DNA from: Bacillus nitratireducens
Lineage (GTDB): Bacteria > Bacillota > Bacilli > Bacillales > Bacillaceae_G
Length of the DNA: 55,904 nt
Assembly (NCBI RefSeq): GCF_001884135.1
Contig: NZ_MAOC01000003.1
Span: forward strand, 1-55,904
Direction: 5' to 3'
Part shown: piece after piece, positions 25,514 to 41,477 of the stretch
Numbering within the stretch: position 1 is the stretch's first letter
How the letters are laid out: each line of letters begins with the position of its first letter
Notes under the pieces: model-generated
Databases searched by the model: none
Seen by the model: the letters and a program-made list of their open reading frames with translations, nothing else
Told to the model about the DNA's origin: nothing
Position numbers and translations under genes: made by a program

Positions 25514-25816
25514 ATGAAAGAACAGATTCATAAAGCATGGAATGAAGGATTCGATTTACACGAAGCGATAATAGCAAGTAAGGGTTCTGTTTTTGAAGAA
25601 AAAATAACATTTACTAAAATGCTGAACGCTGTGGAAGTTGGTAACGGTATAAGTTGTGCCGGATTTATATCAGCACTGTGCTTGGAATATGGGGTACGTT
25701 TTCCAAGTGAAATAAGAACTATCTCAGAATGCAGGGACAATTGGAAGGCTGTAGCGCAATCTTATATTGCTGGTATCATGGGTGAGAATAAAGTAGAAAA
25801 ACTGGACGCTAAATAA
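25514..25816 (+). CDS. Small soluble protein of unknown function, 100 residues
   Basis: ATG 25514 has a strong GGGGGGA six bases upstream, and the stop codon lies inside a hairpin terminator, so it is a complete single-gene unit. The protein is mostly helical, with a hydrophobic middle (GNGISCAGFISALCLEYGV) and no signal peptide. Family not recognised. It stands between two IS240-type relics. Confidence 0.6.
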   Translation: MKEQIHKAWNEGFDLHEAIIASKGSVFEEKITFTKMLNAVEVGNGISCAGFISALCLEYGVRFPSEIRTISECRDNWKAVAQSYIAGIMGENKVEKLDAK

Positions 25817-25829
25817 GGCGTCTTTTTTT
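25805..25829 (+). terminator. Terminator of the 100-residue protein gene
   Basis: GACGC (25805-25809) pairs with GCGTC (25818-25822) and is followed by TTTTTTT; the stop codon is in the loop. Confidence 0.8.
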
Positions 25830-25892
25830 ACGTCCTAAAACGGTGCGTATTTACAAGTACCTAACCGAAAAAACAAATTCAATGAGAAAATA

Positions 25893-26202
25893 GATTCTGG
25901 TGCGAAGGTTGCAAAGAATCTATAAATCTTGGACATACTGTTAGTACTATCCTATAAGAGGTGTGTAATCTGTATGGAAAGGGAAAATTTATTTAAGTGG
26001 ACACATTGTCAACCAGACATCAGTCTCTATATTGAGTGGTGTTGAAGCCATACATGTGCTCCAATAAGAACTAATGATTTGCAGGACCAGTCTGTCCAAA
26101 ATTAGAATATTTTTATTAACCAGCTCTTTGGATTAACTGCTTAACAGATGATTCCGTTAGGAATCTCTGATTCTTTTTATTATCATTTTTTGCACCAGAA
26201 CC
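25893..26202 (+). mobile_element. Internally deleted IS240-like element
   Basis: A 310-bp relic. The left end GATTCTGGTGC and the subepisomal sequence CTTGGACATACTGTTAGTAC match the left side of the intact copies; the start of the transposase (MERENLFKWTHCQPDI, from 25974) is fused to its C-terminal part (QDQSVQN, then FINQLFGLTA). The right end complement of GGTTCTGGTGCAAAAAA is at 26202. About 550 bp of the transposase gene are missing, and further stops have accumulated. Confidence 0.85.
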
Positions 26203-26241
26203 ATTTTTACAGATTAGCAACTATTTGTATAAAATAAGCAA

Positions 26242-26276
26242 ATAGCTTAGTTCTTATCAAACAAGAACTAAGCTAT
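26242..26276. repeat. 14-bp-arm stem-loop
   Basis: ATAGCTTAGTTCTT (26242-26255) and AAGAACTAAGCTAT (26263-26276) are perfect complements with a 7-base loop and no T-run on either strand. Confidence 0.75.
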
Positions 26277-26398
26277 GAGTACGTAGCTACCATTAGTTAT
26301 TAAATTTTACTAATGTAGCACATCGATCTTTTAAGTAATAAACAGAAAGATTTACTTTCGAATTTTTCATTCTTATATGCATATAATTATAACTTTTT

Positions 26399-26927
26399 CT
26401 ATTTCCCCTCATTGACTGGCAGCAAATCGTTTGAAAACAAATTAATCATGCCATCTTAAGAAATTACTATAATAATACACCTTTGATGTTCCTTATAATT
26501 ATATAAATATCTCACTGCAGAGTTATAGCGTGCTCCCCTTGATTTATCCTCTATCTTTTCATCTGATTGTCCATCTAAAATCACCTCAATAGCTGAACAT
26601 TGTCCTTGTGGATTTAATAAAACTGCTCCATCAATTGAAGTAACACCATAAACAATATTCTTAAACATGGAAATTTGACAATCTACTTCATGACCAGTCA
26701 GTCGTTGAGCTTCTTCTTCCGCTTTATCTGTTATCACCAACATCGTTCCATGTTCCTGTTTACTAGCTTGCTCAATAATAGACCAAAGCGTTTTAATATC
26801 ACCTTCTTCATAAAAAATATTTTCAAACTCTTTTTGAAATTCATTATAGCTTATTAGCTGTTTAGGTATAGAGGGAATACTGTCTTTGACAGTCATAATA
26901 TGATTACAATTAGGATATTCCAAATCC
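26399..26927 (-). pseudogene. DAC (diadenylate cyclase-like) domain protein, broken
   Basis: The minus strand encodes the core of a DisA_N/DAC domain: SIDGAVLLNPQGQCSAIEVI has the DGA motif, and DKSRGARYNSAVRYL matches the GARH/GTRH loop that contacts ATP, with Tyr in place of the usual His. A TAA at 26456-26458 replaces the expected Glu codon in VISEDG; the same frame then continues DGMINLFSNDLLPVNEGK to a stop at 26399. The N-terminal part is cut off by IS copy C at 26928, and a TTG start at 26923 is probably artefactual. DAC proteins make or sense cyclic di-AMP, and DAC domains with extra N-terminal modules occur in bacterial conflict systems. Both lesions argue it is dead. Confidence 0.7.
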
Positions 26928-27790
26928 GGTTCTGGTGCAAAAATAAAATTAAAGAGAATAAATCATATATATTCCTAACGGAATCGTATCTTATGCTGCA
27001 AGTCCAAACAATTGATGAATGAATTTTTTCTGGTTTTGGACAGACTGGTCCCGTAAATCAATCTGTTCTTTTTTAATCATATGCATAGCTTCTACTCCAG
27101 AAAGAATGGATGTAGCTGTGTCAAAATATTTGAGCCCTAGCATAGAGCGGGTTCGCTTCTTTATAAAGCGATGATCTTGTTCTACTATGTTATTCAAGTA
27201 CTTTTGTTGTCTAAGTTGCATACCATCAGGTATGCTTTTTTCTTTTTTCAACTGTTCAATTGCTATCGGATAAGCCGGGTTCTTATCGACTGTTATAACA
27301 CGTGGCTTTGAAACATGAAAAGATCGCAAAGCTTTCTTGAAAAAGCGCTTTGCAGCCTTCTGGTCTCTTGTTTTGTTTAGGAAAAAATCAATTGTGTTTC
27401 CTTTCGAATCAACAGCACGATACAGATACATCCATTGACCTTTTACTTTGATATATGTTTCATCGACTCTCCAAGAGTCATTTGTTTGTTTGAGGTAACG
27501 GCGGATTCGTTTGTCCAATTCAGGACCATACTGATGAACCCAACGCATAATCGTTGTATGAGAAATGGATAAACCCCGTTCTTCTAGCATTTCCACCAAA
27601 TCACGAAAACCGAGGTTGTACCGTAGGTACCATCTTACCGTTAACAAAATAATATCAGGCTGATAATGCTTCCATTTGAATACATTTTCCTTTTCCATAC
27701 CAATCACGCACCCTTTTTAAAGTAATAGTAACAGTATGTCCAAGATTTATAGATTCATTGCAATTGTCCTTAAGTTTTTGCACCAGAACC
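26928..27790 (-). mobile_element. IS240-like insertion sequence (IS6 family), copy C
   Basis: An 863-bp element with ends GGTTCTGGTGCAAAAATAAA (26928) and the complement of GGTTCTGGTGCAAAAACTTA (27790). Same length as copy A and very similar in sequence but inverted. The flanking octamers CCAAATCC and TCAATAAT differ. It cuts the 5' side of the DAC gene. Confidence 0.92.
26991..27698 (-). CDS. IS240-like (IS6 family) DDE transposase, copy C
   Basis: 235 residues from ATG 27698, with the catalytic acids in RVDETYIKVKG, TVDKNPAYP and NNIVEQDHR. It differs from copy A at a few positions (for example RTRSMLGLKYFD against RIRSMLGFKCFD, and ERGLSI against ERCLSI). The frame is intact. Copies A and C are in opposite orientation, 24 kb apart, so recombination between them would invert the whole iol cluster. 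Confidence 0.92.
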   Translation of the reverse strand: MEKENVFKWKHYQPDIILLTVRWYLRYNLGFRDLVEMLEERGLSISHTTIMRWVHQYGPELDKRIRRYLKQTNDSWRVDETYIKVKGQWMYLYRAVDSKGNTIDFFLNKTRDQKAAKRFFKKALRSFHVSKPRVITVDKNPAYPIAIEQLKKEKSIPDGMQLRQQKYLNNIVEQDHRFIKKRTRSMLGLKYFDTATSILSGVEAMHMIKKEQIDLRDQSVQNQKKFIHQLFGLAA

Positions 27791-28000
27791 TCAATAATGC
27801 ATATAGTAGATTGTTTTTTACTATTACTAATATGTAACCCCCTATTAGAAAATAAAGATCGTCTTATTATAAAAAAAGAAATGCCCTCATAAATTTTGAA
27901 ATGAAGGCAAAACTAATTTTTATATACCACAGCTTATATATTGCCAAATACTATCTTAAAAATAAACACTTTGAAAAAGATTAACCACTACCCAAGCCAA

Positions 28001-31000
28001 TTATTCTAATCCCCAAAACTCAAAACAAGCCCAATCTGATGGAATACTATGTGATTGACTTTCTAACAATTTTTTTTGTGCGTCTATAAGTAAAGTAGAA
28101 ATATCCTCTGATTTTTTTTCATTTATAAGCTCCTCTACCACCATCAATCCAGGTTCTACTCCTACGTCCCATCTACATAAAATTGAATTACAATTTTGAG
28201 ATACTACACTTCTCCAAACGCTATCCTCTGATTGAGTATTATGTACGATGGGCTGTCCACTCTGACAAGTCAGCAAAAATATTGTTTGTACTTTAGATGC
28301 AACTCCTTCTAAAAATTCTGAACCTAGATAATTTTTATTAGGTCCTAGTATTCTAACTGCACCACTTGCAATTCTTTTTTCTCCACTCTCCTCTATTCCA
28401 TGAGATATAAAAACAAATAATGTTGGTTTTGCTGCATTTAATTTTTCATATAGAATTTCATAATTATCTCCAAAATCCTCTATATAAGAACTAAATTTAT
28501 TTTGATTACTGGTCAACCAACTCTGAGCTATTGGTATGGCTTTATCGTTTCCATTAACTTTAGAACCTATAGAAATAATGTTATTTTTCAAATCCCCATT
28601 TTTGGTAGTAACTCTATATTTAAATTCATTAGGAGATAGTACATGTGTTAATTTTTTTATTTTTCTAATCATCCACCCTATTTCATCCCTCACTAACGAA
28701 GTAGTGAAGTACGGTATAGACATATCCGGACACACAACTATATTAAGTGGCTCTTCTGATTTTCGAATATAGTTTATCAAGTTATTGAATAAAATCTTTG
28801 AGAATTCTGTACATTGTTGTTTAATTTCTTTTAGTTCTATTTCTTTTCTATCTTCACTAAAAGATAATTTTTCCCCCAATAATTTCAATTCGCTATTTAA
28901 TCTATTATTATCTCCTACATAATAATCTAACTGATAGGAATCCTTTGTAACTAATACACTTACAACACCATTTGATGTCAAACAGTATTGATAAAAAACA
29001 TCTTCTCTTAAATTTCTTTGTAATATAGATAGATTTATTTTTTCTAATAAAAACATACTTTTAAAAGATGGATGTTCCTTAATCAAATAATTTTTTAGTT
29101 CTTCAAATCTACGTGACTTATTTATATATTCTTCCGTTCCAATATCAGGAGTCAATCTCAACATTTCATCATACAATTGAAAATATTCTTTAGCTTTTTC
29201 ACTGGCTTGCTTGGACATTTCTTTTTTCGATAGTTTCTTTTCAACGACTGCTCTTGGAGATAATAAAAAAACTATATCTATAATTTCTTTATGCAATTCC
29301 ATTCTATCTTGTTCTGATAATCCTTTCGATTTTTCCATTAATAATATTATATCTAAAAAGAATTTATAAACCTCTTTTGTACCTTCACTAAATGCTGCTC
29401 TTTCTTGCATGTGAAAAATTCCTGATCGTTGTACTTCTATATCTGCTATAGCTGTATTTAATAAATCTCTTATAAAAATTAATTCTTCATCCCTACCATT
29501 TCCCTCTATAAAATAACCATTAAAAACTACCTGAGCAAACTGATAGCACACTCTCCATCTGTGATCTAAACGATATTGGAATAATTTTAAAATATCATTT
29601 GATTTATGCTTAATTAAGCTACATGCTTTTTTCTCTTCACCTATTTTTAATAAAGTAGTAATATAATTCACCATATTAGTTGCATCATTCACATCATTAA
29701 GTACATTATCAACCAATACGTTTTCTAGCAATAGATTAGCTTCTTCCCACTGTCCTAATGATAATAAACTTTCAATTTCTAATAATATTTTATTATCTTT
29801 TTCATTTACACTACTAGTAAATTTTCTTTTAAAGGAAACAAACAAGTTTCGAACTGGATGGCTTTCTTTTAAATCATTACTAACATAAAGAAAAATGATG
29901 TTTATTGCTCCTTCTAAAATATAATAATTTTTAATTTCTATTCCTTTTCTTATAGCTACAATAGCACATAAAAGTCCATCAATCTTTCTTCCTGTTTTAT
30001 ATTGTGATGCAGCCCAAGCTGATAAGCCTAATCCTAATAGAGTTTTTTTCAAAAATTCATCCTTCTCACGATTATATCTATTTAATATCATTAACGCATG
30101 CTCGTTGGCTTGTTGAAAATCTCCTATATAAGAGAAATACATTGAAATTTCATACCTAAGATATGCTTCTTTTATCGGATCATTAAATCTACTTTGTGAG
30201 ATAAGCGCACCTTTTATTATTTCTAATTTTTTCTCTTTACTAAAATCCTTTATCTTTAAATGTCTTACAGCATATAAAATTGTCTCAAATTCTATTTCTC
30301 CGTCTTCGCCATTGCTAGATAAATCACTTTCTATAATACTCTCTTTAATTCCCTCGAATGATAAGCTATTCCATAATTCTATTTCTTGTTTCATTTTTTC
30401 ATTCACACTATTGAACCATACATCATTATTTTGTGTACAATCAATAAAATCTTGTAAATACTGATATCCTTGGTCTTCTAAGAATAAATACTCTAAACCT
30501 TCAATAATTTCATTGATTCTAAGACCTCGAATATATGATAAATCTCTATCTTTACTTGGTTTAAGTTTAATTGCATTTATTATAGAATCTTCATTCTTTA
30601 ATATCTCAAGCTTTCTAATAGCTACATCTCTTGAATAATAAAAATTTTCATTTATTTTTATTTCTTTTAAATTTGAATAATATTTATAGTTGCTTTTGTA
30701 TAATTTTTTGCAAATTAATGCTGTTCGATAATATATTTCATTATCTAAATCATCATTTTGAAGCAAGCTATGTAAATATGCCTCGGCTATGTTGACTGTA
30801 TCTGGTTTGTTAGCTAATATTTCTGAAATTCTAGCTAGCATATCAAAATACCTATCGTGCGAAATATTAAATATTCTTCTATAAATCCCTCCAGATTCTA
30901 AGTAATATTCATTAATATGTAATAAATCACTTAATTCTTGAAGAATGAATAAATTATCACCATCAATTTCCAAAAAACCTTCTAAAAGTTTCCTTCTATC

Positions 31001-31921
31001 CAAAAACTCTAAATTAAAAGATGACCTAACTAACGCTTCTAGTAAGCCAGGCACCCATTTATCTCGACTATATATATCGATTAGAATACTATATGCTTCT
31101 GAATATCTTTGTTTAGAAATTAGCATATTAGCACAAAAAATAATCTGTTCATCGTTTAAATCATCAAAAACTTCGAATAATTCTTTTAACGCTTCTTCAA
31201 AATAACCGTTGTGAAGATAAGAAATAATTTTCATCAATGATTTATTTGTTACCGACAAAGATGTATCTGCTTCTATATACCGTAAACTCTCGTTTAATTC
31301 TTTAGAAACAATAAATTTCAACATATCGTCACTATTGACTTCTGAGGATTGATCCATTAAGCTCGTAATACTTATTTGTTCATTATCAATAAATTCATTT
31401 ATAATTTTTCCAGCTTTTTTAAAGGATGTTTCAAAAAGTACTATATTCCTTTTATAATAAGAATTCTCGTCATCAAAAATATTTTTTAATTCATAGATTT
31501 TTTCACTAATATTCAACTGTTCAGGTGTAAATAACTTGATATTGGCTACATCTGTTAGTTTCTCAACTAAAGGCTTTTCATTTATAAAATTACACAATCG
31601 TTCCGTACCTAAAATAATTAAATAATTATTACAAAAATGCGTATTCCCTATTAATGCTTTATATACATCTTTACTTTCTGGAACATAAATAGATATATTA
31701 TCAATTATAGCCTGAGTAAATTTATTTTGATTAAAAATGATACTTAATAATTTTTTTAACTCTTCCTCTTTATATTTGTAATTTAGTATTTGAATTTTAT
31801 TTGTACTATCTTCATTTATTATTTCATTGATTACATAATCCAATGATTTTTTTTCAACACGTATGCTGTTTGATAAAATAATATTAAAATTACCCTCAAC
31901 AAATCTAAGTTCTTGTTCCAT
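28001..31921 (-). CDS. Large TPR-like helical protein with C-terminal CHAT caspase-like protease domain
   Basis: 1306 residues. The C-terminal 250 residues form a CHAT domain: the catalytic histidine is His1174 in TLFVFISHGIEES and the cysteine is Cys1219 in IFLLTCQSGQ, each after a hydrophobic strand, as in separase/caspase-type proteases. Residues about 200-950 are helical with TPR-like repeats (for example NGYFEEALKELFEVFDDLND, QQANEHALMILNRYNREKDE). The first 180 residues are an alpha/beta domain I do not recognise (IQILNYKYKEEELKK, NYLIILGTERLC). No membrane segment or signal peptide. CHAT proteases act as executioners in several bacterial defence systems; its partner is probably the NTPase-nuclease upstream on the same strand (32857-35508). 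ATG 31921 follows AAAGGAG. Confidence 0.85.
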   Translation of the reverse strand: MEQELRFVEGNFNIILSNSIRVEKKSLDYVINEIINEDSTNKIQILNYKYKEEELKKLLSIIFNQNKFTQAIIDNISIYVPESKDVYKALIGNTHFCNNYLIILGTERLCNFINEKPLVEKLTDVANIKLFTPEQLNISEKIYELKNIFDDENSYYKRNIVLFETSFKKAGKIINEFIDNEQISITSLMDQSSEVNSDDMLKFIVSKELNESLRYIEADTSLSVTNKSLMKIISYLHNGYFEEALKELFEVFDDLNDEQIIFCANMLISKQRYSEAYSILIDIYSRDKWVPGLLEALVRSSFNLEFLDRRKLLEGFLEIDGDNLFILQELSDLLHINEYYLESGGIYRRIFNISHDRYFDMLARISEILANKPDTVNIAEAYLHSLLQNDDLDNEIYYRTALICKKLYKSNYKYYSNLKEIKINENFYYSRDVAIRKLEILKNEDSIINAIKLKPSKDRDLSYIRGLRINEIIEGLEYLFLEDQGYQYLQDFIDCTQNNDVWFNSVNEKMKQEIELWNSLSFEGIKESIIESDLSSNGEDGEIEFETILYAVRHLKIKDFSKEKKLEIIKGALISQSRFNDPIKEAYLRYEISMYFSYIGDFQQANEHALMILNRYNREKDEFLKKTLLGLGLSAWAASQYKTGRKIDGLLCAIVAIRKGIEIKNYYILEGAINIIFLYVSNDLKESHPVRNLFVSFKRKFTSSVNEKDNKILLEIESLLSLGQWEEANLLLENVLVDNVLNDVNDATNMVNYITTLLKIGEEKKACSLIKHKSNDILKLFQYRLDHRWRVCYQFAQVVFNGYFIEGNGRDEELIFIRDLLNTAIADIEVQRSGIFHMQERAAFSEGTKEVYKFFLDIILLMEKSKGLSEQDRMELHKEIIDIVFLLSPRAVVEKKLSKKEMSKQASEKAKEYFQLYDEMLRLTPDIGTEEYINKSRRFEELKNYLIKEHPSFKSMFLLEKINLSILQRNLREDVFYQYCLTSNGVVSVLVTKDSYQLDYYVGDNNRLNSELKLLGEKLSFSEDRKEIELKEIKQQCTEFSKILFNNLINYIRKSEEPLNIVVCPDMSIPYFTTSLVRDEIGWMIRKIKKLTHVLSPNEFKYRVTTKNGDLKNNIISIGSKVNGNDKAIPIAQSWLTSNQNKFSSYIEDFGDNYEILYEKLNAAKPTLFVFISHGIEESGEKRIASGAVRILGPNKNYLGSEFLEGVASKVQTIFLLTCQSGQPIVHNTQSEDSVWRSVVSQNCNSILCRWDVGVEPGLMVVEELINEKKSEDISTLLIDAQKKLLESQSHSIPSDWACFEFWGLE

Positions 31922-32031
31922 ATCAATATACTCCTTTTGTAGAAAACTTCAAATTCAGTACTCTCTAAGCATTTAACTATTTATCTCTATAATAAAATAA
32001 TAATTAAAACAATTATTAAAATCAAATTCTA

Positions 32032-32252
32032 CTAATCAACCTTTTCACATACTATATCAATTAATGTAGTGACCTCTTCAAAATTATGATAATTAAAGAT
32101 ATTACACTAGCAACAGTAGTACTTCCCTTACGATTTGATTCATTAAGTAAAGTTATATAACTGTCTATGTTATCAAATTCTAATCTGGTTATTGAATTTG
32201 TATAGGATAATTCATTCTTTTCTAATTTTGTAAACAGTGAACTAAAATAAAT
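32032..32252 (-). pseudogene. Frameshifted coding remnant inside the NTPase/CHAT module
   Basis: The minus strand reads FSSLFTKLEKNELSYTNSIT, RLEFDNIDSYITLLNESNRK and GSTTVASV in one frame. In the next frame it goes on NYHNFEEVTTLIDIVCEKVD to a stop at 32032. The switch happens near 32105. It looks like the C-terminus of a real protein broken by a single-base indel and lacking its front (an in-frame stop lies at 32253). Nothing else is seen in 31922-32409. It may be the residue of another component of the module. Confidence 0.4.
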
Positions 32253-32409
32253 CTATCCTAATATAAAACAAACTATTCAATTTTATTTTTCTTGTCTTTG
32301 TATAAATATCTTCTTAAAATATGCAAAATGTATATTCAAATCAACTGCTTTTATTAAAAAAATCACACGTTTATTAATCAAAAAGAGATATGAATTTCTT
32401 TTCTCTCTA

Positions 32410-32661
32410 TCAGGCATTACTATTCTTATAATGGTATGATATCTTTAATATTTCATCGTCAAAATCGTCACTTTCCCATTTATTTTTAAAGAATAATAAA
32501 ATTGAATCAGTGTGAAAAATAGCTTTAAGAGCATTATCTTTCGTAAGCTCAATGAATAGAGAATAACAAATTTCAATATTATATCCATTTAGGAGTTCAC
32601 GAGATTCTCTAATGCTTTTGAACTCAGGTTTATAGTCAATACAAATTGCATTCAATTTCAT
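32410..32661 (-). CDS. Small protein of unknown function, 83 residues, in the NTPase/CHAT module
   Basis: Lies between the NTPase and the CHAT gene on the same strand. It has an alternating strand/helix pattern (LNAICIDYK, GYNIEICYSLFIELT, KAIFHTDSILLFFKNKW) as in a small alpha/beta domain such as TIR- or receiver-like folds, but no catalytic signature is visible. ATG 32661 has no good ribosome binding site, so the true start may differ or the gene may be the end of a longer one. Family not recognised. Confidence 0.45.
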   Translation of the reverse strand: MKLNAICIDYKPEFKSIRESRELLNGYNIEICYSLFIELTKDNALKAIFHTDSILLFFKNKWESDDFDDEILKISYHYKNSNA

Positions 32662-32771
32662 CAGACTATTCGCTTATTACATATTTTGTACGCTATCCAA
32701 TGCTATGAAAAAGACAATTCTATTTTAAAAGACATAATTACGACTTAAATAAAAGAATGAAATATCTTGAT

Positions 32772-32802
32772 AAAAAAAACTTGGTGATTACCAAGCTTTT
32801 TC
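32772..32802. terminator. Terminator after the NTPase-nuclease gene
   Basis: CTTGGT (32781-32786) pairs with ACCAAG (32791-32796), with AAAAAAAA before and TTTTT after. It separates the NTPase gene from the 83-residue gene and the CHAT gene, which thus need read-through or their own promoter. Confidence 0.75.
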
Positions 32803-32856
32803 TCATTCATCATTATTTACATAAAACAAAAATCACATATAATAAATATAACATGA

Positions 32857-35508
32857 TTAGAATTGACGTATGGGAATATTTTCATTAGACAAAAATAATC
32901 TAATCACTGGTTCAATCTGTTCTCGAATTGTTTTTTCATCAGATAATCTACTCTTATTTAATAAAATTATCTTGAAGTTCTGGTTTAAATTATTAGACTC
33001 TTTTTCAAGCCATGTTTCTACAATTTTTTCAACTCTACTAATTTTTTCACTACTAACAAACATAACTATTATTAACTTCGAACCTTTTCGATTCCCCTCT
33101 AACCCTTCTAACATTTTTATACCCTGTTTTATAGTTCTTTCTGTATAATGACCAAAAGCATTATTAGGAAATGTCTTAATTTCTATCCCTAAACATCCCC
33201 TATGCTCTCCTAAATCAATTTCAATATCAGGCTTTGGCCCAGGGACATCATTAACTACACTATATACCCCTCCATTACTAATCATATGTCCCTTATCCCT
33301 GTCGTAACTATTAATAATGTTCGGAGTAATATATGATAAATAGTATTCTAAAATTCTACTCTCGAATTCTAAAAATTCTCTTCGGTACTTTTTTAAAGAC
33401 TCTTGACTATCATCATCTTGATTATTTAGTTCTGATACTTCTTGTAAAAATTTAAATCGATTTTTCAAATAGCTTATATCAGATGCAGAAAGTTTTAACA
33501 TATTTATCATATGGTCAAAATCCAATTCTATATCTCCAGTTCTGAATATTTGTAATTCAACAGTGATCTCATCAATCAATTGTTGTATACTATTAAACTC
33601 TAAAAGATATTTTCCCTGGACAATTTCAAATTGTTGTTTACTCATTTTCTTAGGAGTATATTCATATAAAATCTGTAGTTCATCTTCATTTGTAGATTCA
33701 CATTTTTCAACCAATTTATACTGGTTCAATAATATAAAAAACCTTTCTAATACTCTTTTATGTTTTTTTATAAATGAAGGGGAATATATTGTGTCAGTTG
33801 CTTGCTCCTCCGATTCCAGTACAAGAATATCTTCTTGTCTAAAGTCCTCACCAATTGTATCTTTAATTCTTTGGACAATGATATGTACAAACTCTATAAT
33901 AAAATCTTTCTCTTCATTTTTGTAAACTTTATTATATTTATCACCTATGTTTTCCGTAATTTCTTTATAAAATATCTGTATAATCTTTTGTATTTCCTGA
34001 TCATTTTTATATTCTATATAATCATTTTCTGTTATTTCAATATAACTTATTGATTCTTGTTCACATATATCAGTTCCATCCCTGTTGTAACTTCCCCAGT
34101 CTACCTTTGCTCTTAATAACATAATCATTTTTCTTGTAATCCCATTCGACCTCAAAATCATCGCATCACGAAAACTTTCATAATAAAGTTTTTGTTGGTC
34201 TACAAACTTATTTTTCAAAGAATCATTTACAGGGTTCTTAACTATAAAATCAAAAAGTTTAATCATGCTCTCTCTTGTCATTAATGGGATATGATATGAA
34301 TTAGAGAACAAACTTGGAAGTATAGGATCATGTTCATATTTAGAAACCTCTAGTTTTCGAGCATATTTTTGACCTGTTACTAATAAAAAATTCGCTGTAC
34401 CACTTAAAAATAAAGGCTTTAGCTCCCCTACAATTGTTTCAATGGCTTTATCATCCTCTATTTTATCTAACTCATCAATAACAAATATTACATTAACACC
34501 TATATCCCCTAAACTCTTTACGCTTTCTAATAATCTTAGCTCTGCAATTTCATCATCATATAGTGTCTTAATTTGTTGATCATTAACATGCTTTTTTTCC
34601 CGACTATATGTCATTTTCCCTACGACAAAAGCTAAAATGACAAAAAAAATAAGTTGCCAAATTGAATTATATACAAAATTCCCTTCTAAACCTTTTTTAG
34701 CATTCAGTGCTATTTTTTTTAACGATTCTTGATATGTATTAGGGGCTAAATAATACATAATAATAAATGTCACTGGAATCCAAGAAAATTCTAATACACT
34801 GCTTAAAATTCTTGTTTTGCTCTTTGTTTCATTATTTGTTACCTCATAAAATGTCTTTTTAAATAGTTCATTTAAGGTGTTTCTTAATTTCCGATTGGTC
34901 CAGCTATTGATTCGCACATTCGCATCCTTATGTTTGTTTAGTTTTATAATTAGTGACCTTATAAGTTTTCTAATAATATTTTGTTTAGTATCATTTTTAA
35001 CAAAATTACAAGAAACTATAAGGTAAATATCATTATGCGCATATTTCGATGGATGACGAAAAAAAGTAACAATCTCTTTAAAAAGCTTTGTGGGGGTATC
35101 ATAGAAATAGTGTACGCATAGTTCTTTTGCCGCCATTAAAGTATTGTAAAATTTACTTCTTTCTTCTTCCTCTATTATTTCTTCTCTGTTAAATTTTTTT
35201 TCCAGATAATTAATATATGTAGTTTTTCCTACACCACGATTTCCAGAAATAATATATGCTGATGGTGGAAAACCTCTTAATTCCTTTTCTAAATTAATTA
35301 ATTCCTGTCCTAAACCAATTTCTAAATTCCTTTCTGGTGATGTATTTAAATTATTTATATTTACTGGAAATCTAAATCCATACAGTTCACCACTTTGTAC
35401 AGCACCCTTCCCACAACATTTTATTTCTTCTAAATTCTCCATAGGAGCCCAATATATTTTTTTACAATTACTACATTTAATGCCCAGCATTTCTTTTTTA
35501 AAATCCAC
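32857..35508 (-). CDS. Membrane-anchored P-loop NTPase (KAP-like) with zinc ribbon and C-terminal PD-(D/E)XK-like nuclease domain
   Basis: 883 residues from GTG 35508 (GGGAGGAAGGG upstream). Order: zinc ribbon with Cys12, Cys15, Cys31 and Cys32; Walker A SGNRGVGKTTY at 89-98; two hydrophobic helices between Walker A and B (about 233-255 and 280-300, the second WQLIFFVILAFVVGKM); Walker B VNVIFVIDELDKIED near 340. A membrane hairpin inserted between the Walker motifs is characteristic of KAP NTPases. Near the C-terminus KPDIEIDLGEHRG and LGIEIKTFPNN supply an Asp ... Glu-x-Lys pattern of restriction-type nucleases. I infer an ATP-dependent, membrane-bound sensor with a DNA-cutting arm, paired with the CHAT protease. 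Very AT-rich. Confidence 0.82.
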   Translation of the reverse strand: MDFKKEMLGIKCSNCKKIYWAPMENLEEIKCCGKGAVQSGELYGFRFPVNINNLNTSPERNLEIGLGQELINLEKELRGFPPSAYIISGNRGVGKTTYINYLEKKFNREEIIEEEERSKFYNTLMAAKELCVHYFYDTPTKLFKEIVTFFRHPSKYAHNDIYLIVSCNFVKNDTKQNIIRKLIRSLIIKLNKHKDANVRINSWTNRKLRNTLNELFKKTFYEVTNNETKSKTRILSSVLEFSWIPVTFIIMYYLAPNTYQESLKKIALNAKKGLEGNFVYNSIWQLIFFVILAFVVGKMTYSREKKHVNDQQIKTLYDDEIAELRLLESVKSLGDIGVNVIFVIDELDKIEDDKAIETIVGELKPLFLSGTANFLLVTGQKYARKLEVSKYEHDPILPSLFSNSYHIPLMTRESMIKLFDFIVKNPVNDSLKNKFVDQQKLYYESFRDAMILRSNGITRKMIMLLRAKVDWGSYNRDGTDICEQESISYIEITENDYIEYKNDQEIQKIIQIFYKEITENIGDKYNKVYKNEEKDFIIEFVHIIVQRIKDTIGEDFRQEDILVLESEEQATDTIYSPSFIKKHKRVLERFFILLNQYKLVEKCESTNEDELQILYEYTPKKMSKQQFEIVQGKYLLEFNSIQQLIDEITVELQIFRTGDIELDFDHMINMLKLSASDISYLKNRFKFLQEVSELNNQDDDSQESLKKYRREFLEFESRILEYYLSYITPNIINSYDRDKGHMISNGGVYSVVNDVPGPKPDIEIDLGEHRGCLGIEIKTFPNNAFGHYTERTIKQGIKMLEGLEGNRKGSKLIIVMFVSSEKISRVEKIVETWLEKESNNLNQNFKIILLNKSRLSDEKTIREQIEPVIRLFLSNENIPIRQF

Positions 35509-35986
35509 TGTTTTCCCTTCCTCCCTCTTCTCTTAATTGCAATCTAGACTCTCATAGATTAAATACCCTTTTTCTCATTTACACTGTGCATCCAATTGCC
35601 CTTCTGAATATCAATCTAAATAACAAATCAATTAGTTCTATTGTGTATAAACACTGCTCTTCATTTAATTTTTAGCATTTTTTCAGCTTAGCCTATTTAA
35701 TCATAAATTATTTTCTATATTTTTGTAACTAATCCCTTCAGCCATTGAAATCATTGTTTACTTATGCATCTAAAACAATCTATTTTTAGTCTAACACAAA
35801 ACATAATTTCATTTATTCGACATACAAATTATTTGTATAAAATTTAATCAATCTATTTTATCCTTTATTAATTCTTTAATACTAGACATTTGATATTGCA
35901 TAAGCAAAATCTTATCCCCTGATTCCAGAACGTTTTTCTTATATCTTTATGAAATAATCATCCATCAATCGTAACTCATTTACTGA
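35509..35986. other. Noncoding region upstream of the NTPase gene
   Basis: AT-rich, no open frame of interest. The promoter of the NTPase/CHAT module is expected here on the minus strand, but no convincing -35/-10 pair stands out. Confidence 0.4.
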
Positions 35987-36590
35987 TTAGATTTGTTTAA
36001 TCTCGATATAAGGCCCTTTGATGTTTAATTTGTTAATATCATTTGAGATAATGCCTACAGTTATTTTTTCATTAAATTTTTAGACCTTTTCACCATTTAC
36101 AAAGATACCCCGATTTTTATCTTCGTAACTGATACCATAACCAGTATTGCTAGATGTAGCTTTGAGTTGATTTCCATTCATTGAAAAAGATAATTTCCCT
36201 TTTCCTTTGTTAAGTTTGTTATTCACGTTGTTGATACCATTCATTTGTTCTTCAAGGACTTTTTGGTTATCAAGAGTAACTTGATGGTTTTTCCAGTCTA
36301 ATTTATAGTTGTTTGTCAAGAACTCATTATATGTATCCTTATTATTTGTTCCCCACCATTTTGAACTTACCCATTCAATATTGTACTGATCTTAAATTCT
36401 ACGATTTGTTATTTTTAAATCTGATGTAGATTCTGTTTTATCAGCAGTAATAACTGCTACTACATTTGGAGAAAAACCATAACCTGTTAACGCTGGTACT
36501 GTATCTTATGAAACAAAATTATTCGTTCCTTCATTAAAAACACAGATATAGTATCAAATTCCCGGTAAAATTCTAATATGATACTCGTTG
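35987..36590 (-). pseudogene. hlyII: Haemolysin II remnant
   Basis: The minus strand retains the rim and C-terminal part of a leukocidin-family beta-channel toxin: VPALTGYGFSPNVVAVITAD, then EWVSSKWWGTNNKDTYNEF and NYKLDWKNHQVTL. It continues into the extra C-terminal domain that is particular to HlyII (NKGKGKLSFSMNGNQLKATS; NDINKLNIKGPYIEIKQI). It is broken by stops at about 36391 (after NRRI), about 36508 (before DTVPAL) and 36080 (after NGEKV), and by at least one frameshift near 36545. The N-terminal two thirds are gone. No functional toxin can be made. Confidence 0.85.
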
Positions 36591-36717
36591 CTAAATAATA
36601 TCTTTGGAGAAGATGAGATGCGATAAAATAATGAATGTTCATATAAAGGGGAACGAGCAAATAACTCATTTACTAAATAGATTACCTTATATCGGTATTT
36701 GATGTATGTAAAATTAC

Positions 36718-36781
36718 ATATCAATCTTTATTGAAAACTATTATCGTTGTAACTATAATGGTTTTCAATAGAGATTGATAT
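36718..36781. promoter_or_regulatory. 21-bp inverted repeat enclosing promoter elements on both strands
   Basis: The arms at 36718-36738 and 36761-36781 match in 20 of 21 positions. On the plus strand TTGAAA (36731-36736), 17 bases and TATAAT (36754-36759) form a near-consensus promoter for the secreted-protein gene at 36832. On the minus strand the mirror-image TTGAAA, 17 bases and GATAAT form a second promoter pointing to the hlyII remnant. Confidence 0.75.
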
Positions 36782-36831
36782 TTTCACTTCCTTTTCAAAT
36801 TTCACAACATATTAAAGGAGGAATTAGCATT

Positions 36832-37245
36832 ATGAAAAAAGTTATTTTAGCAGGGACACTAGTGATTGGAGTACTGTCAGGTATCAACTTACCAGGGGCA
36901 GAGGCACCAAAAGCAAGTGCAGCAACTACAAATTTAGAAATTCAAGAAGTTACAAAATATTACTCTATGAGTTCTTACGAAGTGTCTCAAAAGGAAACAT
37001 TTAATCTCAATAAAGGAGAAGAACTTACAGTCTTTGTACAAAATTCTGGATTTCCAATTTCTTATACGGTCTTTGATGCAGATAATCAAATAATTGGCAC
37101 CTACAATGCTAATTCACCATATGGTCGCGTATTCAAAGCACAAAAAGATGGTAATATTTCTGTACAATTTCAAGCAGGTGCAAATTCTTCGTACATGAAG
37201 AAGATGAATTTCACAGCTAAATTTGCAGTTTCAAAGCTTAACTAA
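36832..37245 (+). CDS. Small secreted protein of unknown function
   Basis: 137 residues with a clear signal peptide (MKKVILAGTLVIGVLSGINL, cleavage probably after ASA near residue 30). The mature part of about 107 residues is a predicted beta-sandwich (ELTVFVQNSGFPISYTVFDA, ISVQFQAGANSSYMKK). ATG 36832 is chosen because AAAGGAGG lies nine bases upstream; a longer frame from 36775 has no such site. The promoter is inside the inverted repeat at 36718-36781, and a bidirectional terminator follows. Proteins of this type are common in the B. cereus group; function unknown. Confidence 0.8.
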   Translation: MKKVILAGTLVIGVLSGINLPGAEAPKASAATTNLEIQEVTKYYSMSSYEVSQKETFNLNKGEELTVFVQNSGFPISYTVFDADNQIIGTYNANSPYGRVFKAQKDGNISVQFQAGANSSYMKKMNFTAKFAVSKLN

Positions 37246-37280
37246 CAATCAAAATTTCATTATCCTCTTTCAAAAAATTA

Positions 37281-37313
37281 AAAAGGTATATCCCTTCAAT
37301 GGGATATACCTTT
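37281..37313. terminator. Bidirectional terminator
   Basis: AAAGGTATATCCC (37282-37294) pairs with GGGATATACCTTT (37301-37313); it separates the convergent secreted-protein and spore-protein genes. Confidence 0.88.
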
Positions 37314-37317
37314 AACT

Positions 37318-37533
37318 TTAGTGAATTTTATATTGACCAGATAACTGTTCTTGCGCCATACGAACTAAACGTTTTGTAATCTCTCCACCTACTGAACCAT
37401 TTGCTCGTGCTGTTGAATCCGGTCCAAGTGTAACACCAAACTCCTGAGCAATTTCATACTTCATTTGTTCAATTGCACTTGCTGCAGCTCCTACCAAAAT
37501 CTCGTTTGAATTATTATTTTCGCGAATTTGCAT
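37318..37533 (-). CDS. Alpha/beta-type small acid-soluble spore protein
   Basis: 71 residues with both family signatures: the germination-protease region around [15 protein letters not shown] (cut after the Glu) and the DNA-binding [16 protein letters not shown]. Made in the forespore under sigma G, it coats spore DNA and protects it from UV and heat, and is degraded by Gpr on germination. A good AGGTGTG/GGAGG-type site precedes ATG 37533. Single gene. It shows that the host is a spore former; such genes may also travel on plasmids. Confidence 0.94.
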
Positions 37534-37564
37534 TTCTTACACACCTCCGTTGAATTTGGTAATA

Positions 37565-37804
37565 TCATGCTCTATTTCCAGCAAAATATGTAAAAAGATC
37601 AAAAAAAAAAAGACACATTAAGGTGTCTTTTTTCAATATGTTTTTATCAATGTTTTCATTCACAAAATTTCTTGTATTTTCTTCAGTAAAAACCCCTTCA
37701 GGTATGTATTTCATAACATTGATATCTGACGTATACTCATGGACAGCCTGCCAATCTTTGAACTCAAATTTCCGTATTAAAAACCTCTCTTTTTTTACAA
37801 ACAT
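37565..37804 (-). pseudogene. GNAT acetyltransferase, N-terminal fragment
   Basis: The first 52 residues (RFLIRKFEFKDWQAVHEYTS and MKYIPEGVFTEENTRNFVNE) match the beginning of GNAT N-acetyltransferases of the RimJ type. After NIDKN the sequence runs into a terminator hairpin (37601-37633) and the rest is unrelated. The acetyl-CoA binding motif is absent, so it is inactive. Confidence 0.75.
37601..37633. terminator. Rho-independent terminator
   Basis: AGACAC (37611-37616) pairs with GTGTCT (37623-37628), with a run of A before and TTTTTT after. Confidence 0.75.
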
Positions 37805-37827
37805 TCACATTTATTTCCCCTTAAAAC

Positions 37828-37897
37828 AAAAAGAACTTGTAGGAATCTCTACAAGTTCTTTTTAGTTTCAGGTGAATATACGAGACAAACTATCTTA
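37828..37897. repeat. Dispersed hairpin repeat, copy 1
   Basis: AAAAAGAACTTGTAG (37828-37842) pairs with CTACAAGTTCTTTTT (37849-37863) and is followed by AGGTGA...GACAAACTATCT (37870-37895). The same hairpin with the same adjoining words, inverted, lies at 49633-49702. Confidence 0.7.
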
Positions 37898-38018
37898 CAG
37901 ATTCATCATAGAAACTACAGGGGTAATGCTTTGACAAATATATTATATAACAAATATTAACAGCCATAAATTTCGATTTTGAAAATTATGTGAATTAAGA
38001 ACGAAATTAGCTTTTTTC

Positions 38019-38705
38019 TTAACTATTATTAATTTCGTTTACTACTAACTTCTTTTTCCTTAAATAAACTGCTCGATCCGATTTTTTTGCAACTTCTTGT
38101 GAATGCGTAACTACAATTACACATTTATCCTCTTGATGAGCGAGCTCCTGAAACAACTCAATAATTTCATTTGTTGTTTCTCCATCAAGGTTTCCTGTTG
38201 GTTCATCAGCAATCAATAAATCGACATTGCAAGATAGTGCTCGAGCAATTGCTACACGTTGTTGTTGTCCACCACTTAGTTGCAAGACATTTCGTTTCGC
38301 TTCTACTTCTGTGAGTCCTACCTTCTCTAATAATTCTAATGCTCTTGCTTTTTTATTTTGTACCTTCACACCTGTAATTTCCATTGCCGTTAGTACATTC
38401 TGAAGAGCGGTCATATAGGTAATCAAATTATACGCTTGGAAAATTACGGATACATTTTGATTACGGTATCGATCCAAACCAATTTTTCGAATATCCTTGC
38501 CATTATATAGTACATAACCGTTTTTAGGTATGTCCAGCCCACAACCTAAGCTAAGAGTTGTGGTTTTGCCAGATCCAGAGGGCCCTAAAATCGTGTAAAA
38601 ATGCCCTTTTTGAAAAGAAAAATTAACATTATCTAGTATCGTTACTTTTTTCCCGTTACTTTCATAATAATAATCTAAGTTTTTAAATTGTAAAATCGTC
38701 TCCAT
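38019..38705 (-). CDS. ABC transporter ATP-binding protein
   Basis: 228 residues of the MacB/LolD-like ATPase branch. Walker A GPSGSGKTTT (residues 42-51), Q-loop FQAYNLITYM, signature LSGGQQQRVAIARAL, Walker B LLIADEPTG and switch histidine VVVTHSQ are all present. It is encoded 11 bases downstream of the permease and forms a complex with it. Such pairs export antimicrobial peptides or signal peptides, or detach them from the membrane. The divergent two-component system at 41606-43784 is likely to control it. Confidence 0.95.
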   Translation of the reverse strand: METILQFKNLDYYYESNGKKVTILDNVNFSFQKGHFYTILGPSGSGKTTTLSLGCGLDIPKNGYVLYNGKDIRKIGLDRYRNQNVSVIFQAYNLITYMTALQNVLTAMEITGVKVQNKKARALELLEKVGLTEVEAKRNVLQLSGGQQQRVAIARALSCNVDLLIADEPTGNLDGETTNEIIELFQELAHQEDKCVIVVTHSQEVAKKSDRAVYLRKKKLVVNEINNS

Positions 38706-38716
38706 ATCGAGCCTCC

Positions 38717-40141
38717 TTATTCATCTTTTAAAAGAATTTGTTTTGGATTTAAGCGTAGAATAGATAATGCTGGAAGAAGCGTTGCTAATATAGCAATAGC
38801 TAGTCCAATTCCCCCCATTTTTCTTACATCTTCTCCCGTTACACTTACATCAATTTTATCAATTGGATCTTCGTTTTGGTTTTGTGGCGTACCACCAGCT
38901 CCAACCATCATTACACTACCATTTTGTGAATTGTCTTTTTCTTCGCTTGCTGTAGCAATTTCACTCGAAAGTAAGTTATCCCCTACGAATTGAGAAACTT
39001 TAGCTCCTGTTGTTAGAGATAATCCTAACGCTAAAATAGCAATACATACTACTTCTACTACGAACTGCGCCATCAGTTTCCATTTTTTCTCTCCAATGGA
39101 CAATAAAATCCCCATTTCCTTACGACGTGCTTTAATCGATAACATAATGATTAATCCTAAGATAATCGCACCTGCAATAGATACCATATAGATAATCATT
39201 TGAGAAGTAGAAGCGATATTTTCGATAGGCCCAATCATTTGTTTGTATAATGAATCATGTGCATCTAACTTAAAATAATTAAAATCAATATCAGATTTTT
39301 TTGCTTCTTTTTTAAATGCATCAATGTATTGTGGATCGTTCAATAAGTACACAACTTGAATACTACTACTCATACCTTCATCTGTTTCTAATTTTTTTAA
39401 AGTAGAGTAAGGCATATATAGTTTATTAGCTGGATTCATCATAGGAGGGGGATTTTGACCCATTGGTTGCTCATTCGTTTCGTAAATACCGATAATTTCA
39501 ACTTCAAGAGTTTCCTTCTTATCCCCTGATTGAACTTTAACTTTATCTCCTACTTTCAAATTGTTTTGTTCCGCTAATCGTTTTTCCATTAAAGCTACAT
39601 TCTGATCTTGCATCTGTTCTGTAATTGGTTTTCCATCAACGATTTTACTTTTTCCATTTTTGAAACTTTCTTGTAATAAAGTCTTGCGAACTCCTTCTAT
39701 CATAAGAGAAGAATTCATATCTATTTCTGAACCTGAACCTGATCCTCCCACCATTGCAACGTTACCTTTTCCTTTTCCTTCTCCTTCTGAAGCCCCTACT
39801 AACTTAAACCCATCCGCAATTCCGAAATTATTGGTTATATAATTATAGTCTTTTACATGCTTGGACTTCGCTAATTTGTCTGCTTCTTTTGTGTTGAGTT
39901 TCGGCGGCTTAGGCATCTCGCCAGTTTCCCTAGCTTGTTGACCTAATTTGTCAAAATCAAGACCTAAAGTAACATCTGCACCTAGTTTTTTTCTTGCTGC
40001 ATCAGCAGCTTTTTTTGATGCATTTTGGATTGTGAATCCTGCCAGCACTAAATTTGTAACAATCAGGAAGACTGCCATCAAAATTAATGATGTTCCTATT
40101 CTTTTTTTCATACTGAGAATTGCGCGTTTTATAAAATTCAT
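38717..40141 (-). CDS. ABC transporter permease, FtsX/MacB type
   Basis: 474 residues: one N-terminal membrane helix (15-37), an extracytoplasmic domain of about 260 residues rich in Gly, Lys and Asp (including GEGKGKGNVAMVGGSGSGSE), and three C-terminal helices (about 315-340, 358-380, 440-462). This is the 4-helix mechanotransmission layout. ATG 40141 has AGGAGG upstream. The nearest named relatives in memory are the VexP-type permeases of Gram-positive bacteria. Putative response-regulator sites lie in its leader (40182-40222). Confidence 0.88.
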   Translation of the reverse strand: MNFIKRAILSMKKRIGTSLILMAVFLIVTNLVLAGFTIQNASKKAADAARKKLGADVTLGLDFDKLGQQARETGEMPKPPKLNTKEADKLAKSKHVKDYNYITNNFGIADGFKLVGASEGEGKGKGNVAMVGGSGSGSEIDMNSSLMIEGVRKTLLQESFKNGKSKIVDGKPITEQMQDQNVALMEKRLAEQNNLKVGDKVKVQSGDKKETLEVEIIGIYETNEQPMGQNPPPMMNPANKLYMPYSTLKKLETDEGMSSSIQVVYLLNDPQYIDAFKKEAKKSDIDFNYFKLDAHDSLYKQMIGPIENIASTSQMIIYMVSIAGAIILGLIIMLSIKARRKEMGILLSIGEKKWKLMAQFVVEVVCIAILALGLSLTTGAKVSQFVGDNLLSSEIATASEEKDNSQNGSVMMVGAGGTPQNQNEDPIDKIDVSVTGEDVRKMGGIGLAIAILATLLPALSILRLNPKQILLKDE

Positions 40142-40181
40142 TTTTCCTAACCTCCTTGATAGCTATTATTCTATATACGCT

Positions 40182-40222
40182 ATCTAGAGTTTGTATGGAG
40201 TTACTCAGTAGTTTATCTAGAG
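40182..40222. promoter_or_regulatory. Candidate response-regulator boxes in front of the ABC operon
   Basis: ATCTAGAGTT (40182-40191) and ATCTAGAG (40215-40222), each followed by a TATGGAGTT word, form a direct repeat with about 33-bp spacing. The same motif, AACTCYAGAT in reverse, is found at 41179-41188, 41478-41485 and 41560-41569 near the regulator gene. Confidence 0.5.
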
Positions 40223-40404
40223 ATATATGGAGTTTATGTGTACTTATTCATTGACCTTAGCAAGAAAAACTGGAACACAAATTAGAATACGCAATTGATT
40301 TTGAATATTGGTAGAGAGCCAGTCCATTAATGTGGGGTGAGGACGAATGGAATGATCGTACATATAAAACTAGTAAAATAGAAAAAACCACCGAAAGGTG
40401 GCTG

Positions 40405-40614
40405 TTAAGCGGTACGTGTTTGTTCCATTAATTTCACGGTTTTTGTTAGTTTTTCACCATTTCGATAAACGGTTACTTTAATTGTATCCCCCAATTTTTT
40501 CTTTTCATATAAATATTTACGGAATTGAACGACATTTTCTATTTTTTGTTCATCCAATGCAATCACAACATCATACTGTTGTAAAAAAATAACCTGTTTT
40601 TTTATAGGATTCAT
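40405..40614 (-). pseudogene. HtrA-type serine protease, PDZ-domain remnant
   Basis: After the first ten residues the frame reads QQYDVVIALDEQKIENVVQF, RKYLYEKKKLGDTIKVTVYR and NGEKLTKTVKL, the second half of a PDZ domain of DegP/HtrA-like proteases, and ends with a stop at 40405. The protease domain, the membrane anchor and the first part of the PDZ are missing. There is no good ribosome binding site at ATG 40614. Probably a nonfunctional tail. Confidence 0.65.
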
Positions 40615-41253
40615 TCCTATTGTTTTCTGTTTGATTTGTATCAGCGTGTCCCATTGTGAACATTCCTTTCACCTTTTATTTCACTTGAATATTTTAATTT
40701 TCATATTTGAATTAAGATGTATGGATGTGATATTTAGGACTCACCATTTCCCAAAAATAAAAAGGTATCTTTAGGCATGGTTTAGACATAAATTAACTGT
40801 TTTTTTCATAGAGGGAATTGTATAATTTAATTTTCATATAACTGCATATAAGTTTTTTAAAATAATTTTGAACAAATCTCTAAAAAAAGAGCCTATTCGG
40901 CTCTCATCAAATCAATTATTCAATGTACATAGCATGTTATACAGGTGTTTTGCAAAAAGTGGCTACAAGGAACAATAACCATCCATTAGCTTATTTACTC
41001 TTTTGTTATAAACGTAGAGCCGAACGTTCTCGTGAGAATGGAGGATAATAGGTTTGTGTGTAAATAAGAAGGAAGGGATAAAATTTGATAGATTGTGTAA
41101 ATCGTCAACATCATGTATCAATCCTTTCTATTTGATACATGTAGAATACAAACCTAATCTGTATTCTATATGTAGTTAATCTAGAGTTATAGTAAAGTTT
41201 TTCAGTACTTCGTTATTGAATACACAAAAAAGAAAGAATTAATTTGATCCTCT
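40615..41253. other. Noncoding region with hairpins between relic and small gene
   Basis: No gene is seen. It holds a terminator-like stem GAGCC/GGCTC (40888-40902), a stem GTTCTC/GAGAAC (about 41023-41038), ATGTATCAA/TTGATACAT (41114-41140), and a palindrome-like pair TAGAATACA/TGTATTCTA (41142-41150, 41160-41168) that shares its core with the 38-bp palindrome at 5598-5635. An AATCTAGAGTT box is at 41178-41188. Confidence 0.5.
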
Positions 41254-41430: not shown

Positions 41431-41477
41431 CTTGATTACCTCCCTCTGTCTTGTTATGTATATAACCTATCTCATGC

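What the first reader, a model, noticed from the sequence alone, without database searches (positions are those of the whole stretch)
28001..35508. Candidate undescribed immunity module: zinc-ribbon KAP-like NTPase-nuclease plus TPR-CHAT protease
Seen: two very AT-rich genes on one strand. One encodes an 883-residue protein with Cys4 zinc ribbon, Walker A/B motifs split by a two-helix membrane insert, and a C-terminal D ... E-I-K nuclease-like motif. The other encodes a 1306-residue helical protein ending in a CHAT domain with intact His1174/Cys1219. An 83-residue gene and a broken gene lie between them, and the flanks are insertion sequences and toxin relics. Known: KAP/STAND NTPases act as sensors and CHAT proteases as executioners in bacterial conflict systems. 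Inference: a membrane-bound NTPase senses infection and cuts DNA or activates the CHAT protease. I know of no named system with exactly this pair.
Basis: partly seen in the sequence, partly recalled or inferred. Interest (0 to 1): 0.85.

Follow-up and report, generated by a model that had tools for sequence, protein, structure and literature searches.

The report
Membrane ATPase-nuclease and divergent CHAT protease genes
Two intact genes lie side by side in a Bacillus-like chromosome, one for a membrane-anchored ATPase with a nuclease-like tail and one for an unusually divergent caspase-like protease; each resembles known phage-defence parts, but nothing found here shows that they form one system.

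Summary
The two long genes are real, open and at the stated coordinates. The 883-aa protein is a KAP-family P-loop NTPase (PF07693, 35.1 bits, cut-off 20) with two hydrophobic segments between Walker A and Walker B. Its tail carries a PD-(D/E)XK-like motif, but that fold could not be tested. The 1306-aa protein ends in a very divergent CHAT domain: Pfam misses it, but a profile of 14 plasmid CHATs aligns to it end to end with His1174 and Cys1219 in register (score 33.0; best of 100 shuffles 20.7). TPR repeats and the zinc ribbon were not confirmed. The pairing is unsupported: 935 bp and a predicted terminator separate the genes, each has its own ribosome-binding site, and the plasmid of the one NTPase relative found (Priestia megaterium, 28% identity) shows no CHAT match. 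That relative keeps the KAP core with a different, HEPN-like tail. Best reading: a Tmn-like single-gene membrane NTPase-nuclease beside an independent CHAT protease. Few relatives could be reached, so a true two-gene system is not excluded. New variant of a known kind; interest moderate.

The parts
32857..35508 (-). KAP-family P-loop NTPase with two hydrophobic (membrane) segments between Walker A and Walker B and a PD-(D/E)XK-like C-terminal motif (883 aa, GTG start)
   Evidence: PF07693 35.1 bits over cut-off 20 at 82-359; motifs and hydropathy; SD GGGAGGAAGG before GTG, by eye
33175..33231 (-). PD-x(14)-E-I-K nuclease-like motif, residues 760-778 of the NTPase
   Evidence: positions; pattern with hydrophobic flanks in 5 of 5000 shuffles of residues 695-883, bare pattern in 251 of 5000
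35413..35475 (-). CxxC...CC cluster (Cys12, 15, 31, 32) of the NTPase, possible metal site
   Evidence: positions; no zinc-ribbon family match
32772..32803 (-). predicted intrinsic terminator just after the NTPase stop codon
   Evidence: stretch chosen by eye; fold -14.5 kcal/mol, z -4.95, 0 of 200 shuffles fold as well; consensus scan lists the hairpin on the plus strand only, 1 found against 1.4 expected
32410..32661 (-). 83-aa ORF, doubtful gene
   Evidence: weak sub-cut-off HEPN match 15.2 bits, cut-off 22; no clear RBS by eye
28001..31921 (-). 1306-aa protein, mostly helical by eye, with a C-terminal divergent CHAT peptidase
   Evidence: SD AAAGGAG before ATG, by eye
28004..28894 (-). residues 1010-1306 of that protein, the stretch tested as CHAT domain (His1174, Cys1219)
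   Evidence: profile alignment to 14 plasmid CHATs; His1174, Cys1219, Trp1251, Trp1297 and Phe1300 invariant in an alignment with 9 of them
26991..27707 (-). IS240-type (IS6 family, recalled) transposase at the left edge
   Evidence: PF13610 160.7 bits

Best explanation
Two separate genes carried together in mobile-element-rich DNA. The 883-aa protein is a membrane-anchored KAP NTPase that most likely works alone as an anti-phage or anti-plasmid guard, as Tmn does. Inferred mechanism: the KAP core, held at the membrane by its two-helix hairpin, assembles and hydrolyses NTP when an invader is detected, and this releases the tail, here a PD-(D/E)XK-type nuclease that cuts DNA; in the Priestia relative the same core carries an HEPN-like tail instead, so the tail would be the exchangeable effector. 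The 1306-aa protein is an independent CHAT protease whose long N-terminal part holds the peptidase off until it binds its trigger. Shown here by sequence: KAP core, hydrophobic hairpin segments, CHAT domain, intact catalytic residues, predicted separate expression signals. Inferred: nuclease activity, membrane placement, sensing, defence role.
For: KAP_NTPase 35.1 bits over cut-off 20; hydrophobic segments 234-252 and 278-296 between Walker A and B. The Priestia plasmid relative shares the core (28.3% over residues 205-629, E 1e-29), including KTLYDDEIAE and the Walker B region, while the tails show no clear similarity (21 of 300 shuffles reach the local score of the tail after residue 630). 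The Priestia tail has RNRIVHG at 585 and weak, sub-cut-off HEPN hits (HepT-like 14.0 bits, cut-off 23.5; CARF_HEPN 11.9 bits). No CHAT gene is annotated in 8 kb either side (that gene table is incomplete), and the whole 127,523-base plasmid gives no PF12770 match at E 0.001 and no match to the 1306-aa protein at E 1. Predicted terminator after the NTPase, 935-bp gap, own SD for each gene. Tmn is described as a KAP-family NTPase with two transmembrane domains that inhibits several phages (PMC11846954, passages). CHAT: score 33.0 over 253 columns against 100 shuffles (max 20.7), 11 other fragments (max 18.7) and 26 of the 50 window ORFs (max 20.0).
Against: Only one NTPase relative and no relative of the 1306-aa protein were found, so neither conservation nor independence of the pair could be measured. 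PF12770 would miss a CHAT as divergent as this one, and one search has no positive control, so the Priestia result is soft. PADLOC names no Tmn for the NTPase (best PDC-M28C, 16.5 bits, Walker A stretch 82-117 only). The nuclease fold is untested, no nuclease family matched the tail, and a comparison with two Mrr domains gave nothing (score 11.4, 43 of 100 shuffles reach it). hhalign gives the CHAT match a probability of only 26% (16% with the whole protein), and known CHATs as single sequences score 168-302 on leave-one-out profiles against 33-43 for this one, so its activity is uncertain. A terminator does not forbid joint action.
Confidence: 0.5

Rival explanations
1. One two-gene immune module: the membrane NTPase detects infection, and activates or delivers substrate to the CHAT protease, which executes.
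For: Same strand, adjacent, similar very low GC against most of the window; CHAT and KAP domains are both named among putative conflict-system parts, though not as a pair (PMC10907252, passages), and a CHAT protease is an effector of a CRISPR system (PMC10028731, passages).
Against: Predicted terminator and 935-bp gap between the genes; no CHAT match on the plasmid of the Priestia relative. In the 14 plasmid records that gave the CHAT profile, KAP hits at E 0.001 were present in 4 (2 over the cut-off), none within 10 kb of the CHAT used; those are ordinary CHATs, further CHAT places in the same records were not checked, so it is a weak control.
Confidence: 0.22
2. Both genes are passengers of mobile or plasmid-like DNA with another role, such as plasmid or element maintenance and exclusion of competing elements, not phage defence.
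For: The Priestia relative lies 0.9 kb downstream of a plasmid replication gene, with a plasmid stabilisation gene and a hypothetical gene between; the window has IS240-type transposases and FtsK/Replic_Relax genes of plasmid or integrative-element type.
Against: No replication gene was recognised next to them in the window; exclusion of other elements and defence overlap anyway.
Confidence: 0.18
3. Decaying flotsam: the genes were brought in by transposition and are no longer used.
For: A transposase and repeat remnants beside the genes and about 490 bp without a long frame in between.
Against: Two long frames of 883 and 1306 codons are open, with ribosome-binding sites and intact Walker and His/Cys motifs.
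Confidence: 0.1

Closest known systems
Tmn (transmembrane KAP NTPase, phage defence; PMC11846954, passages)
   Same: KAP-family NTPase with two membrane segments
   Different: No Tmn-named hit in PADLOC; here a CxxC...CC N-terminus and a PD-(D/E)XK-like tail; no direct sequence comparison with Tmn was made
QatA of qatABCD (PMC13279940, passages)
   Same: KAP NTPase with a C-terminal domain of its own
   Different: No QueC-like QatC or TatD-like QatD among the flanking ORFs scanned
Priestia megaterium pFDU301C ATP-binding protein WP_171779233.1 (NZ_CP045275.1)
   Same: KAP core with membrane insert, 28% identity over residues 205-629
   Different: No Cys4 N-terminus; tail HEPN-like instead of PD-(D/E)XK-like; no CHAT match found on its plasmid
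Csx29 / TPR-CHAT of Craspase (PMC10028731, passages)
   Same: CHAT peptidase with His and Cys 45 residues apart here (H615/C658, 43 apart, in Csx29) behind a long N-terminal part
   Different: No recognisable TPR, no CRISPR-type repeat array in 25800-36800 and no Cas family among the ORFs scanned; no Pfam CHAT and no PDB sequence hit

Membership tests
KAP P-loop NTPases (PF07693) | match to the family model over its cut-off | tested here: met
   35.1 bits, cut-off 20
[quoted passage not shown] 2004, seen only in reference lists) | tested here: met
   hydrophobic segments 234-252 (1.64) and 278-296 (2.15) between Walker A 89-96 and Walker B 343-349
Tmn | KAP NTPase with two membrane segments | tested here: met
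   description of Tmn
Tmn | sequence match to Tmn proteins | tested here: inconclusive
   PADLOC returns no Tmn-named model; whether that library holds one could not be seen
Tmn | protects against phages | not testable with these tools
   needs an assay
qatABCD | operon with QatB, QueC-like QatC, TatD-like QatD | tested here: not met
   no QueC or TatD family among the flanking ORFs scanned; [quoted passage not shown]
CHAT peptidases | Pfam PF12770 over cut-off | tested here: not met
   no PF12770 hit for the whole protein at E 1 or for residues 1130-1306 alone at E 10
CHAT peptidases | end-to-end profile alignment with catalytic His and Cys and the C-terminal W-A-F motif in register | tested here: met
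   253 columns, score 33.0, best of 100 shuffles 20.7, probability only 26%; His1174, Cys1219, Trp1251, Trp1297, Phe1300 invariant with 9 plasmid CHATs
Craspase TPR-CHAT (Csx29) | TPR repeats before CHAT | tested here: not met
   no TPR family hit; consensus match no better than shuffles
Craspase TPR-CHAT (Csx29) | type III-E CRISPR locus with Cas7-11 | tested here: not met
   no regularly spaced repeat array in 25800-36800; no Cas family among the ORFs scanned
PD-(D/E)XK nucleases | PD ... (D/E)xK motif between hydrophobic strands | tested here: met
   residues 760-778; 5 of 5000 shuffles (pattern chosen after seeing the motif)
PD-(D/E)XK nucleases | nuclease fold | not tested

The most novel reading that the evidence does not exclude
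A new two-gene immune system in which a membrane-inserted KAP NTPase with an exchangeable nuclease tail (PD-(D/E)XK here, HEPN in Priestia) is the sensor and first effector, and a highly divergent CHAT protease is the second, death-inducing arm.
Probability: 0.18. Interest if true: 0.75.

Novelty: new variant of a known kind. Interest (0 to 1): 0.42.

Why it matters
KAP NTPases take part in phage defence as Tmn and as QatA of qatABCD, where QatA affects the range of phages blocked (PMC13279940, passages), but the mechanism of Tmn is called unexplored in the paper seen (PMC11846954, passages). A KAP core that carries a nuclease-like motif in one species and an HEPN-like tail in another would suggest a simple rule, one NTPase switch with interchangeable nucleases, and give a direct way to test how these proteins act. 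The CHAT domain is missed by the Pfam and PADLOC models, which hints that caspase-like proteases of Bacillota may be under-counted.

Tried and rejected
Nuclease: hmmscan of the tail, phmmer against PDB and hhalign with two Mrr domains gave nothing; a first Mrr run picked wrong reading frames and is discarded; a search for SduA_C to build a second comparison rang nowhere. Structure: a single-sequence model of residues 1010-1306 had mean pLDDT 40 and was not used. Relatives: genome contigs was scanned twice without result, but the patterns chosen by the tool were poor (the second scan used two, neither on Walker A or B), so this is not evidence of absence; viral contigs six scans, none; phages none for either protein at E 0.01; plasmids one NTPase relative and, at E up to 10, one chance-level hit (E 9) for the 1306-aa protein. 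I considered that the Priestia and window tails are one domain with swapped active sites; the alignment does not bear this out (last domain, 11 of 300 shuffles reach the local and 30 of 300 the semi-global score; helical stretch before it, 70 and 108 of 300), so it is left open. I considered the 83-aa ORF as a third gene; nothing supports it. Papers: I saw the listings of ten searches (one search listed 25 of 577) and passages, by term search, of six papers (PMC11846954, PMC3710099, PMC10853773, PMC10907252, PMC13279940, PMC10028731); none was read whole. None of what I saw names a KAP plus CHAT two-gene system; PMC13037465 holds the words KAP, CHAT and phage and was seen in the listing only. 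PMC10853773 (passage) places a KAP NTPase in operons with Orc/CDC6-like proteins; none was recognised in the flanking ORFs scanned here. Only open-licence PMC papers are held; the 2004 KAP paper and the 2020 Gao paper were not.

Full report
Observation. Both ORFs exist at the given coordinates on the minus strand: 28001-31921 (1306 aa, ATG) and 32857-35508 (883 aa, GTG). GC is 0.271 and 0.283, with first/second/third-position GC of 0.373/0.263/0.177 and 0.385/0.261/0.204, in a window of otherwise mostly 0.29-0.45. Each has a good Shine-Dalgarno sequence by eye and an in-frame stop within ten codons upstream with no other start between. Between them lie 935 bases: a predicted intrinsic terminator at 32772-32803 (chosen by eye; fold -14.5 kcal/mol, z -4.95, 0 of 200 shuffles as good; the consensus scan lists this hairpin on the plus strand only, 1 found against 1.4 expected), an 83-aa ORF without a clear ribosome-binding site, and 488 bases of very AT-rich DNA (GC 0.221) without a long frame. 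An IS240-type transposase ends the stretch on the left. The source looks like a Bacillus-type spore former (alpha/beta SASP) and not a known plasmid: plasmid records match at most 10% of 37000-52000. The species is not known.

The NTPase. Pfam KAP_NTPase matches residues 82-359 with 35.1 bits against a cut-off of 20. Walker A is at 89-96, Walker B at 343-349, and the only two segments of the protein that pass a hydropathy of 1.6 over 19 residues, 234-252 and 278-296, lie between them, as in membrane-inserted KAP proteins. Cys12, 15, 31 and 32 could bind zinc, but no zinc-ribbon model supports it. The tail contains PD760-761 and E776-x-K778 flanked by hydrophobic residues; the pattern with flanks appears in 5 of 5000 shuffles of residues 695-883, the bare pattern in 251 of 5000 (chosen after seeing it). 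No nuclease family or PDB chain matched convincingly, two Mrr domains did not align, and the structure job failed, so nuclease activity is an inference from the motif.

A relative with another tail. The only relative found in plasmids is WP_171779233.1 on Priestia megaterium plasmid pFDU301C (28.3% over residues 205-629, E 1e-29; still the only record at E up to 10). It shares the membrane insert region, KTLYDDEIAE and the Walker B region, lacks the Cys4 start, and its tail has RNRIVHG at 585 with weak sub-cut-off HEPN matches. The tails of the two proteins are not clearly similar. Its 17-kb neighbourhood holds, among other genes, plasmid replication and stabilisation genes, and no gene annotated as CHAT. 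The whole plasmid has no PF12770 match at E 0.001 and no match to the 1306-aa protein at E 1 (no positive control). PF12770 would miss a CHAT as divergent as the one in the window. So the core seems to travel without the CHAT gene at least once and to carry different tails.

The CHAT protein. No Pfam, NCBIfam, PADLOC, PHROGs or PDB sequence match names a CHAT domain. I therefore built a profile from 14 plasmid CHAT domains: one found with PF12770 and 13 taken from the 202 plasmid records that match it by tblastn (40 were listed; 12 of the 13 are annotated as CHAT). Residues 1010-1306 align to it over 253 columns from end to end, score 33.0, E 7e-4 for one comparison, probability 26%, with the His-Gly, Cys, W-V and W-A-F motifs in register; the whole protein gives score 35.3, probability 16%. 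Controls: 100 shuffles, mean 13.4, sd 2.3, maximum 20.7; 7 other fragments of the same protein and 4 of the NTPase, maximum 18.7, reached by fragment 901-1197, which overlaps the tested stretch; 26 of the 50 window ORFs, maximum 20.0; known CHATs left out one at a time score 168-302, the window tail 33-43 on the same profiles. In a plain alignment with 9 of the 14 CHATs (identity 12-20%), the eight invariant columns include His1174, Cys1219, Trp1251, Trp1297 and Phe1300. I read it as a CHAT domain far from the bulk of the family. The N-terminal thousand residues show no TPR by Pfam or consensus.

Do they belong together? No evidence found says so. The terminator, the gap and the Priestia plasmid speak against a fixed operon. 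Among the 14 plasmid records behind the CHAT profile, KAP hits at E 0.001 occurred in 4 (2 over the cut-off), none within 10 kb of the CHAT used (the closest is a sub-cut-off hit about 11 kb away on the circular record NZ_AP026078.1). These are ordinary CHATs and other CHAT places in the records were not checked, so the control is weak. The whole genome of the window is not held, and the genome scans used poor patterns, so a proper neighbourhood survey was not possible.

How it most likely works. By analogy to Tmn, a KAP-family NTPase with two transmembrane domains that blocks several phages by an unexplored mechanism (PMC11846954, passages), and QatA, a DNA-binding KAP NTPase whose mass suggests heptamers or octamers (PMC13279940, passages), I infer a membrane-held NTPase oligomer that unleashes its tail nuclease on sensing an invader. 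The CHAT protein would be a separately triggered protease; Csx29 shows how a helical scaffold can hold a CHAT site inactive until target RNA binds its partner (PMC10028731, passages). These steps are inference.

Known or new. [quoted passage not shown] it is not shown to be a Tmn. No qatC- or qatD-like gene was found among the flanking ORFs scanned. The CHAT protein does not meet the tested features of Craspase Csx29. Nothing seen in the listings, or in the passages opened, names this pair. Hence: new variant of a known kind, moderate interest, with a low-probability but more interesting two-gene reading left open.

Noticed in passing
26456-26923 (-): Short ORF with a DisA-type diadenylate cyclase domain (PF02457, 46.4 bits), next to the IS240-type transposase; possibly an incomplete CdaS-like gene (recalled name).
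   Followed up: no
25909-26164 and 26971-27763: Inverted repeats of 112 and 90 nt (79% and 77%) between the IS240-type element and a degraded stretch, suggesting an old second copy.
   Followed up: no
45028-46792 (-): Replication-relaxation and FtsK/SpoIIIE genes of plasmid or integrative-element type; about 1.4 kb of this region is 72% identical to a Bacillus arachidis plasmid.
   Followed up: no
8683-11829 (+): Large subtilase (1048 aa) with carboxypeptidase-regulatory-like and Ig-like domains.
   Followed up: no
L025 2805-5879 (NC_007410.1 98804-101878): In a Trichormus plasmid a KAP NTPase gene lies convergent with, and next to, an Mrr-type restriction endonuclease gene.
   Followed up: partly
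L013 1-2295 (NC_016586.1): An Azospirillum plasmid CHAT protein gene lies 21 bases from a cas6 gene on the other strand.
   Followed up: no
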